DNA from: Candidatus Heteroscillospira lomanii
GTDB taxonomy: Bacteria; Bacillota; Clostridia; Oscillospirales; Oscillospiraceae
Direction: 5' to 3'
DNA length: 42,866 nt
NCBI GenBank assembly: GCA_904419385.1
Contig: CAJFRI010000004.1
Location: forward strand, 1 to 42,866
In this document: in pieces, positions 40,553 through 42,547 of the stretch
Numbering within the stretch: the stretch's first letter is position 1
Layout: every line of letters starts with the position of its first letter
Program-made: the position numbers and the translations under genes
Notes under the pieces: model-generated
Database searches by the model: none
What the model was told of the DNA's origin: nothing
The model's input: the letters and a program-made list of their open reading frames with translations, nothing else

Positions 40553-40578
40553 GGGAGAGCTTTGGCTCTCCCTTTTTT
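40553..40578 (+). terminator. rpmE terminator
   Basis: GGGAGAGC-tttg-GCTCTCCC-TTTTTT. Confidence 0.9.
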
Positions 40579-40618
40579 CGTCGCCCCGGTGTGAAGTGCC
40601 GGGTTTTTTGTTTTCGGC

Positions 40619-42493
40619 TTAAAACGTCGGCGAGATGCCGAACTCCTTCATCCTGCGCCAGAGCGTCGTCGTGCTTATGCCGAGCTCGCGCGCGGCCGCC
40701 TGGCGGTTGCCGCCGTGCTTTGACAGGGCCTCTATTATCTCTCCGGCTGCGCCGGAGCTTATCGGGCGGCTGCCGCCCTCTGAGTCGGGCGTGTGCATGA
40801 GGCGGATGAGGGTCGAGACCTGCTCGGGCCCTATGCTGCTCTTGCCGGCGGAGATGGCGAGACGTTCGATGAACGACTCGAGCTGGGCGTGATTGCCGGG
40901 CCAGGAATAGCTCTTTATCACGTCGAGGGCCTCCGGAGTCAGCTCGGTGTAGCGGCCGAGCTGCGTGCACTTGCGCTGGAGAATCTCGGCCGCGAGGTCT
41001 GGGATATCGTCGCGCGTGTCTCGCAGCGGCGGATATTCGATGGCCATGGCTGCGAGGCGGAACATCAGCTCGGGCATGATTTTTCCGGAATTGATGAGCT
41101 CGGAAAGCGGCATATACGACCGGACTATGAGCCGTATGTCGAGGTGGGCTGACTCACCGCCGTCGATGAGCGGGAGCGAGTGGTACTGCGACAGGAAAAG
41201 CATCTTGAGCTGGAGCGAAGGATGCAGGTATTCAATGCCGTTTATGAAGAGAGTGCCGTTCGCCGCCTCCCAGGCGGCTCCTGTGTTTTCTCCTGTTTGG
41301 CTGCCGGAGCCGAGCAGGCAGCGCTCCTGTTCCTGCGGTGTCGCCCACATCATCGCGTCGACCGGGACGAATTTTCCATAGCGTGCCGGCTCCGACGCAT
41401 AGTGCACGCACTGTGAGAACTTGAGCACGGGCGTGCCTGCCTCGGCGCAGATGAGGAGAGGGGAGGCGCTGCGGCTGAAGCCGTATCCCTGTTTGATGGC
41501 GCGTTTCATGGCCGGCGCGGAAGTGCGGATGATTGAGAAGCTTATGCGTCCGCGGGCGTAGTCGCTGTTCGTGCGGCTGAGGTCTTTGTCAGTATCCTTG
41601 AACGAGACAAGCACACCATATTCCCCGTCGAGGATTATCCGGCGCATCATTATGGCGAAGCTGTGGTTGCGCAAAGTAACAAATTGTGTGCCGCTGTCGT
41701 TTTCAGAGAGTACGCGGCGGAACAGTTCGATGTCGAGGCCTGGGATGAGATCGGAGACATTGGAGCCTATTATCCTATCGGTGTGCATCCCGAGGACGAG
41801 GCCTGCGCTGCCGTTGCAGCGCAGGGCGGCGCCGCTTTCACCAAAGAGGATGAAGCCGCTGAACGCGCCGCGCATCAGCGCCTCGATATTGCTGTCGTAT
41901 TTCTTCTGCAGGTCAAGCGCCTTGCGCACGGTGGCCGCAGTGGAAAAGGCAATGCGTATCGACTCCTCGGTCGAACCGGCGTATATCGCCGGGACGCCGC
42001 GCTCGTGCGACAGGTGCAGGTCCTGCAGCCCGCCGATGACGGCATCCGCGCCGTCGTCTATGGCCTCGCGCGCGGTCTTATATCGCCAGTCGCTGTAATC
42101 GTGATAGAGGTACTCGCGCAGCTCGACCCCGAACAGATCGTTGAACTTTGAGAGATCGGGAAAAAAGTTCACGGCGCCGATGAGCGCTATTACAGGGCGC
42201 TCCTTGCCGGGACAGAGCTTTTTTGCCCTGTCGACCAGCACGGCGACCTCCTGAGCCGTCATGCTCAGGGTGACCAGGCTCACGTCGCACTGGGCCTGTA
42301 TCATGAGTGCCTGAAGCCCGCGGGCGATGATTATATCTGCGCCTGCGGCCGCTTTTTTCTTTGTCTCGGCTATTATTGAATCCGATGAACGTATATAGCA
42401 GATCTCGTCGACAACGTCAGGAAATTCAGCTGAGACTTTGTTGGCGAGATCGGCTATATTTGGCTGAGGAGCGAAGAAAACGATCTTTCCCAT
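40619..42493 (-). CDS. PrpR/NtrC-type regulator with PrpR_N-like sensor, degenerate AAA+ domain and Fis-type HTH
   Basis: N-terminal 'ADIIIARGLQALMIQAQCDVSLVTLSMTAQEV'; AAA+ remnant 'NGTLFINGIEYLHPSLQLKML...PPLRDTRDDIPDLAAEIL'; HTH 'GEIIEALSKHGGNRQAAARELGISTTTLWRRMKEFGI'. Walker motifs altered. Confidence 0.85.
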   Translation of the reverse strand: MGKIVFFAPQPNIADLANKVSAEFPDVVDEICYIRSSDSIIAETKKKAAAGADIIIARGLQALMIQAQCDVSLVTLSMTAQEVAVLVDRAKKLCPGKERPVIALIGAVNFFPDLSKFNDLFGVELREYLYHDYSDWRYKTAREAIDDGADAVIGGLQDLHLSHERGVPAIYAGSTEESIRIAFSTAATVRKALDLQKKYDSNIEALMRGAFSGFILFGESGAALRCNGSAGLVLGMHTDRIIGSNVSDLIPGLDIELFRRVLSENDSGTQFVTLRNHSFAIMMRRIILDGEYGVLVSFKDTDKDLSRTNSDYARGRISFSIIRTSAPAMKRAIKQGYGFSRSASPLLICAEAGTPVLKFSQCVHYASEPARYGKFVPVDAMMWATPQEQERCLLGSGSQTGENTGAAWEAANGTLFINGIEYLHPSLQLKMLFLSQYHSLPLIDGGESAHLDIRLIVRSYMPLSELINSGKIMPELMFRLAAMAIEYPPLRDTRDDIPDLAAEILQRKCTQLGRYTELTPEALDVIKSYSWPGNHAQLESFIERLAISAGKSSIGPEQVSTLIRLMHTPDSEGGSRPISSGAAGEIIEALSKHGGNRQAAARELGISTTTLWRRMKEFGISPTF

Positions 42494-42547
42494 ATTATCA
42501 CCTGCCGTCATTATACCCCAAGCCGTGAAAAAGGTAAAGAATTAGCA

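What the first reader, a model, noticed from the sequence alone, without database searches (positions are those of the whole stretch)
40967..41548. Sigma-54-activator homologue with an apparently dead AAA+ domain
The 625-codon protein has PrpR/NtrC architecture: a PrpR_N-like sensor, an AAA+ central domain and a Fis HTH. The ATPase motifs are eroded. Walker A GESGTGKE aligns with 'AEAGTPVL' (no GK). The GAFTGA sigma-54 loop aligns with a shortened 'GSGSQTGENTGA'. Walker B GTLFLDEI aligns with 'GTLFINGI' (no DE). FREDLYYRL aligns with 'IMPELMFRL' (first Arg lost). The downstream scaffold (PPLRDTRDDIP, WPGN) and the HTH are well preserved with no frameshift, so this does not look like a decaying pseudogene. 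It may be a sigma-54-independent regulator that kept the fold for oligomerisation or ligand sensing.
Basis: partly seen in the sequence, partly recalled or inferred. Interest (0 to 1): 0.75.

Follow-up and report, generated by a model that had tools for sequence, protein, structure and literature searches.

The report
Dead-ATPase PrpR-type sigma-54-independent regulator
This gene encodes a transcription regulator descended from the ATP-driven activators of sigma-54 RNA polymerase; it and a whole clade of relatives have lost both the sigma-54 contact and the ATPase but kept the sensor and DNA-binding parts, often in bacteria with no sigma-54 at all, so they probably work with the ordinary RNA polymerase.

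Summary
The 630-codon frame at 40619-42511 (-) encodes PrpR_N, PAS, Sigma54_activat, lid and HTH_8. Every residue needed for sigma-54 activation except one arginine finger is gone: Walker A K is V, Walker B DE is NG, sensor I N is Y, finger 1 R is M, sensor II R is A, and the GAFTGA loop is destroyed. The 26 intact homologues compared keep these residues.

It is not a lone pseudogene. It belongs to a clade of about 17 proteins from many genera that all lost GAFTGA. The clade stays monophyletic (99/98) even when the whole AAA+ region is left out of the tree. Close pairs inside the clade show purifying selection.

Intact relatives usually sit beside a strong -24/-12 promoter (17/24); degenerate ones do not (1/26). 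In genomes at least 90% complete, GAFTGA-intact regulators occur only with rpoN (19/19), while 19/29 degenerate ones live without it. One subclade has a palindrome TGAAACG-N2/4-CGTTTCA in 7/7 loci upstream of a peptide-permease operon.

Best reading: ligand-sensing, ATPase-dead, sigma-54-independent regulators acting with sigma-A polymerase, like TyrR, DhaR and VpsR. New variant of a known kind. The window copy's own ligand and targets remain unknown.

The parts
40619..42511 (-). CDS of the degenerate PrpR-type regulator (630 codons as listed; likely start at the second ATG, 42493)
41915..42379 (-). PrpR_N sensor domain (residues 45-199)
   Evidence: 65.4 bits, cut-off 29.1
41672..41884 (-). 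PAS-like region (residues 210-280)
   Evidence: below the curated cut-off; alpha-beta fold modelled with confidence
41039..41524 (-). degenerate AAA+ (Sigma54_activat) domain, residues 330-491
41423..41446 (-). lost Walker A (AEAGTPVL, residues 356-363; K -> V362)
41270..41317 (-). site of the lost GAFTGA sigma-54 loop (LLGSGSQTGENTGAAW, residues 399-414)
41225..41260 (-). lost Walker B (NGTLFINGIEYL, residues 418-429; DE -> N424 G425)
41054..41083 (-). arginine-finger region (KIMPELMFRL, residues 477-486; first R -> M479, second R485 kept)
40880..40903 (-). lid motif WPGNHAQL (residues 537-544; sensor II R -> A542)
40640..40738 (-). Fis-type HTH_8 (residues 592-624), well conserved
42510..42538 (-). 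sigma-70/sigma-A-type promoter TTTACC-17-TATAAT in front of the regulator gene (inferred; 2 such sites found in the region against 1.0 expected in shuffles)
   Evidence: sequence
40555..40603 (.). terminator-like hairpins between the regulator and the convergent downstream gene
   Evidence: sequence

Best explanation
A ligand-responsive, Fis-type DNA-binding transcription factor, derived from a PrpR-like sigma-54 activator, that no longer hydrolyses ATP in the bEBP manner and no longer contacts sigma-54. SHOWN (by sequence): loss of the sigma-54 loop and of nearly all catalytic residues; conservation of the loop loss across a monophyletic clade; purifying selection on relatives; absence of -24/-12 promoters beside nearly all clade members; persistence in genomes without detectable rpoN; a conserved inverted repeat beside one subclade. 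INFERRED: the PrpR_N/PAS part senses a small molecule (neighbours of relatives point to sugar acids, small carboxylates or peptides); the AAA+ fold serves as an oligomerisation and signal-relay scaffold; the HTH binds a TGAAAC-type palindrome or a related site; output is exerted on sigma-A RNA polymerase as activator or repressor. For the window copy the targets are unknown: it looks like a monocistronic orphan with its own sigma-A-type promoter.
For: Catalytic table: 26/26 intact homologues are K,D,E,N,(R/K),R,R,F,(T/S); the query is V,N,G,Y,M,R,A with no GAFTGA. Trees with the motifs removed, and with the whole AAA+ removed, both keep the degenerate clade together at 99/98. dN/dS of measurable pairs inside the clade 0.14-0.32 overall and 0.14-0.33 in the AAA+ part. 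-24/-12 promoter within three genes: 17/24 intact versus 1/26 degenerate, Fisher p=6e-7. rpoN in genomes at least 90% complete: 19/19 for GAFTGA-intact and 10/29 for GAFTGA-lost rows, p=2e-6. Inverted repeat upstream of the permease operon in 7/7 loci, none of whose genomes has a detected rpoN. Well-folded model, pLDDT 90, with the AAA+ fold of solved bEBPs.
Against: No close orthologue of the window protein itself was found (best about 30-33% identity), so selection on this copy is inferred, not measured. This genome retains rpoN and intact paralogues. The palindrome is not near the query gene, and the own-genome search shows no enrichment over its control (30 sites against 52). GC3 of the gene (0.756) is lower than in neighbours (0.81-0.88). 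The rows in the Fisher tests share ancestry; the tree-based pair test had almost no power (1 usable pair on starred branches).
Confidence: 0.82

Rival explanations
1. Heteromeric partner or modulator: the dead subunit joins rings of one of the three intact PrpR-type activators of the same genome and tunes sigma-54 transcription (dominant-negative or scaffold).
For: The genome keeps rpoN and three intact PrpR-type bEBPs; one arginine finger (R485) and the lid are kept.
Against: Carriers without detectable rpoN show that the clade as a whole functions without any sigma-54 activator; subclades have their own operons and, in one case, their own candidate operator.
Confidence: 0.07
2. Recently relaxed, decaying gene (pseudogene in progress) in this genome.
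For: Most eroded member of the clade with a long end branch (1.4-1.9 changes per column); orphan context; genome of only 1.79 Mb with two further degenerate paralogues; lowest GC3 of the genes compared.
Against: No stop or frameshift in 630 codons although the nonsense/missense ratio for this gene is 0.039: the roughly 600 replacements implied by the branch would bring some 25 stops under neutrality (my estimate). HTH, lid scaffold and fold are kept; a promoter-like site and terminator-like hairpins flank it.
Confidence: 0.08
3. It still binds nucleotide or another ligand in the old ATP site without hydrolysis, as a nucleotide sensor (a variation on the best explanation).
For: A glycine-threonine remnant of the P-loop and the fold are kept; R. 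capsulatus NtrC needs ATP binding but not hydrolysis (as cited in PMC10274813).
Against: Walker A Lys, Walker B Asp/Glu, sensor I and sensor II are all replaced in the query.
Confidence: 0.1

Closest known systems
PrpR (propionate catabolism activator, PrpR_N bEBP)
   Same: Domain order PrpR_N - AAA+ - Fis HTH; NCBIfam TIGR02329 matches over residues 19-622 with 161.6 bits
   Different: Far below the equivalog cut-off (499 bits); the ATPase and GAFTGA are destroyed, whereas PrpR is a sigma-54 activator
DhaR / TyrR / HupR (bEBP homologues that lost sigma-54 and use sigma-70)
   Same: Loss of GAFTGA with HTH and AAA+ scaffold kept; DhaR is the best NCBIfam hit (164.8 bits, cut-off 551). Francke et al. 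2011 (PMC3162934) list these as sigma-70 dependent
   Different: Different sensor (PrpR_N) and, in the query, loss of nearly all catalytic residues as well; apparently a separate loss event
VpsR and R. capsulatus / Caulobacter NtrC
   Same: GAFTGA-less bEBPs regulating sigma-70 promoters; VpsR is reported not to need ATP (as cited in PMC10274813)
   Different: NtrC-type response-regulator N-termini rather than PrpR_N; the NtrC proteins need ATP-binding motifs for function
EBPs with altered GAFTGA in sigma-54-less Fusobacterium nucleatum and Jannaschia (Francke 2011, PMC3162934)
   Same: The same evolutionary idea: a regulator outliving sigma-54
   Different: There single genes with Thr/Ser -> Glu in GAFTGA; here a clade across many genera with ATPase loss and an associated candidate operator

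Membership tests
Bacterial enhancer-binding protein (sigma-54 activator) | GAFTGA loop | tested here: not met
   loop replaced by LLGSGSQTGENTGAAW
Bacterial enhancer-binding protein (sigma-54 activator) | Walker A and B, sensor I, arginine fingers, sensor II | tested here: not met
   only the second arginine finger is kept
Bacterial enhancer-binding protein (sigma-54 activator) | bEBP AAA+ fold with Fis HTH | tested here: met
Bacterial enhancer-binding protein (sigma-54 activator) | -24/-12 promoter at the adjacent target | tested here: not met
   best site beside the gene 3.4 bits; no clear adjacent target operon
PrpR (equivalog) | score over the NCBIfam cut-off; prp operon context | tested here: not met
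   161.6 of 499 bits; neighbours are an MBL/SLH protein and a convergent small gene
Sigma-54-independent bEBP homologues (TyrR/DhaR/VpsR kind) | bEBP architecture without GAFTGA, conserved by selection | tested here: met
   (selection measured on relatives, not on this copy)
Sigma-54-independent bEBP homologues (TyrR/DhaR/VpsR kind) | acts on sigma-70/sigma-A promoters | not testable with these tools
   only indirect: carriers without rpoN and lack of -24/-12 sites

The most novel reading that the evidence does not exclude
A whole clade of ATPase-dead enhancer-binding proteins has been re-wired from sigma-54 to the housekeeping RNA polymerase while keeping an enhancer-like site far upstream: in four permease loci the conserved TGAAACG palindrome starts about 100-110 bp upstream of a putative sigma-A -10 element, so a dead bEBP may control sigma-A polymerase from a distance. 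The clade would record the route: loop lost first in the common ancestor, Walker B and Walker A eroded later and unequally, rpoN dispensable.
Probability: 0.25. Interest if true: 0.7.

Novelty: new variant of a known kind. Interest (0 to 1): 0.5.

Why it matters
Sigma-54-independent bEBP homologues are known as scattered cases. Here a clade with a PrpR_N sensor shows a graded series from loop-less with intact Walker A to fully dead ATPases, spread over genera with and without rpoN, with a predicted operator. This makes testable how a regulator survives the loss of its sigma factor. It also warns that automatic 'sigma-54-dependent regulator' labels are wrong for such genes.

Tried and rejected
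1) A search of named genomes (GTDB) gave only distant bEBPs, intact wherever the motifs could be read, so the organism and its close relatives could not be named. 2) Palindrome search of the own genome: fewer hits than the reversed-pattern control, so no regulon could be proposed for the window copy. 3) Operator gap fixed at 4 missed L061, L063 and L129; gap 6 fits them. 4) Phylogenetically independent pairs test: too few usable pairs. 5) dS saturated for L019/L073 and L020/L071, so no omega there. 6) 'Only this copy is degenerate' was rejected. 7) rpoN absence is not itself special: only 121/401 genomes of the family carry it over the cut-off. The informative side is that intact regulators were never seen without it in genomes at least 90% complete.

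Full report
OBSERVATION. The frame 40619-42511 (-) encodes PrpR_N, a PAS-like region, an AAA+ domain of the Sigma54_activat family, the AAA lid and a Fis HTH. The first ATG overlaps the TATAAT of a TTTACC-17-TATAAT promoter-like site, so translation probably starts at the second ATG, behind AGGTGA. The AAA+ scores 52.9 bits against 219-233 bits for the genome's three intact paralogues. Position by position, 26/26 intact homologues carry the Walker A Lys, Walker B Asp-Glu, sensor I Asn, both arginine fingers (one K for R), the sensor II Arg and the F and T/S of GAFTGA; the query has V, N-G, Y, M/R, A and no loop. The fold is nevertheless predicted well (pLDDT 90) and matches solved bEBP AAA+ domains.

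ONE OF A CLADE. The own genome has two further degenerate PrpR_N regulators (C110 = L004, C31 = L016) beside the three intact ones. Searching 201, then 401 genomes of the family and 297 drawn from the order gave many more. With the motif columns left out, the query falls in a supported set of 15 degenerate proteins; L019/L073 join at the next node. With the entire AAA+ left out, the query, L019, L073 and the rest form one clade at 99/98, so shared erosion of the ATPase does not create the grouping. L004 and the partial L031 were left out of that last tree, and L016/L009 is too divergent to place firmly. Within the clade (18 rows counted, L009 included) the loop is gone in all; the Walker A column still holds Lys in 8/18 and the first Walker B column Asp in 6/18. 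GAFTGA was also lost elsewhere: parsimony gives five changes on the wider tree, involving order family f2 (L109-L120), L116/L118, L107, L041 and the L030-L044 group, which keeps its Walker motifs.

SELECTION. Pairs inside the clade: L031/L076 omega 0.14, L022/L026 0.16, L070/L071 0.32, with the AAA+ part at 0.14, 0.14 and 0.33; intact pairs 0.09-0.13. So the dead domain is constrained, perhaps less so in L070/L071. For the query no close orthologue is at hand; absence of any stop despite roughly 600 implied replacements and a nonsense/missense ratio of 0.039 argues against neutral drift (my estimate: some 25 stops expected).

SIGMA-54 LINK. A -24/-12 weight matrix that I wrote from the known consensus finds a site of 13 bits or more within three genes in 17/24 intact loci and 1/26 degenerate loci; the one exception (L122, 14.1 bits) precedes a doubtful ORF. 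rpoN (PF04552) was found in 8 of the 32 genomes searched as carriers of degenerate regulators (one of the eight is a broken match) and in 23 of 30 searched as carriers of mostly intact ones. Scored per protein in genomes at least 90% complete: intact 19/19 with rpoN; GAFTGA-lost 10 with and 19 without. The family base rate is 121/401 over the cut-off, so absence is common; what matters is that intact ones were not seen without it. Rows are not independent by descent.

OPERATOR AND TARGETS. Relatives sit beside glucarate dehydratase (L059, L121, L122, L064), galactarate dehydratase and a TctC receptor (L124), a nickel-pincer isomerase with an RraA-like aldolase (L055, the C110 paralogue), a DctM transporter and a DHDPS-family enzyme (L126), or a peptide-permease operon led by an unknown protein of about 400 aa. 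Upstream of that operon seven loci from several genera share TGAAAC-N4/6-GTTTCA, mostly TGAAACG-N2/4-CGTTTCA, the best conserved element of the region; none of these genomes has a detected rpoN, though some are incomplete. In four of them the palindrome starts about 100-110 bp upstream of a putative -10, which is enhancer-like but rests on weak promoter calls. The window copy has no such operator nearby, and the own-genome search shows no enrichment.

CONTEXT OF THE WINDOW GENE. Upstream, same strand: an MBL-fold protein with SLH domain, interrupted by an assembly gap just beyond the window (C4:42867-42912), and a hairpin after it. Downstream: a convergent small gene that reads like ribosomal protein L31 (my recognition, not tested), separated by terminator-like hairpins. 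The regulator thus looks monocistronic.

COMPARISON. TyrR, DhaR, HupR, VpsR and some NtrC proteins are bEBP homologues that lost GAFTGA and use, or are thought to use, sigma-70 (PMC3162934; PMC10274813). The query works like these by inference. It is not a member of the sigma-54 activators (defining features tested, not met) and not PrpR as an equivalog. A 2019 survey of Clostridiales EBPs (PMC6615313) searched only species that have sigma-54, so carriers without rpoN fell outside it.

LIMITS. Organism names are hidden; gene calls in relatives are my own crude ones; promoter and operator claims are sequence patterns only; no function was tested.

Noticed in passing
G000:C4:42589-44960 (window end and beyond; L054): Upstream neighbour is a long MBL-fold protein (weakly like subclass B3 metallo-beta-lactamases, far below their cut-offs) with an SLH domain; the assembly has a run of N at C4:42867-42912, so the window ends at a gap and the 74-aa SLH ORF is probably its C-terminus.
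   Followed up: partly
L061, L062, L063, L065, L125, L128, L129: Peptide-permease operon led by a conserved protein of about 400 aa beginning like M..YDE(F/Y)VYTLPK, without a Pfam family over its cut-off in those scanned; in L065 and L125 a strong terminator-like hairpin lies between the palindrome and the operon.
   Followed up: partly
L030, L033, L035, L040, L044: A separate group of bEBPs keeps Walker A/B but has GAFTGA replaced (e.g. GALPGG, SAFPGR); four of the five genomes have no detected rpoN. L030 has no PrpR_N. ATPase without sigma-54: possibly a different route to sigma-A.
   Followed up: partly
L109-L120 (order family f2, except L116 and L118): Proteins of mostly about 400 aa with a degenerate Sigma54_activat domain, no PrpR_N in the three scanned, GAFTGA deleted, all in genomes without detected rpoN: an independent loss with omega 0.08-0.11 in two pairs.
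   Followed up: partly
G000:C31 (L016, L056): Third degenerate PrpR_N regulator of this genome directly follows a 395-aa gene that looks like a PucR/CdaR-type regulator with a C-terminal HTH.
   Followed up: no
window:32673-39540: Two large adjacent ORFs that read like AddB and AddA (RexBA) helicase-nuclease subunits, overlapping by 14 bases.
   Followed up: no
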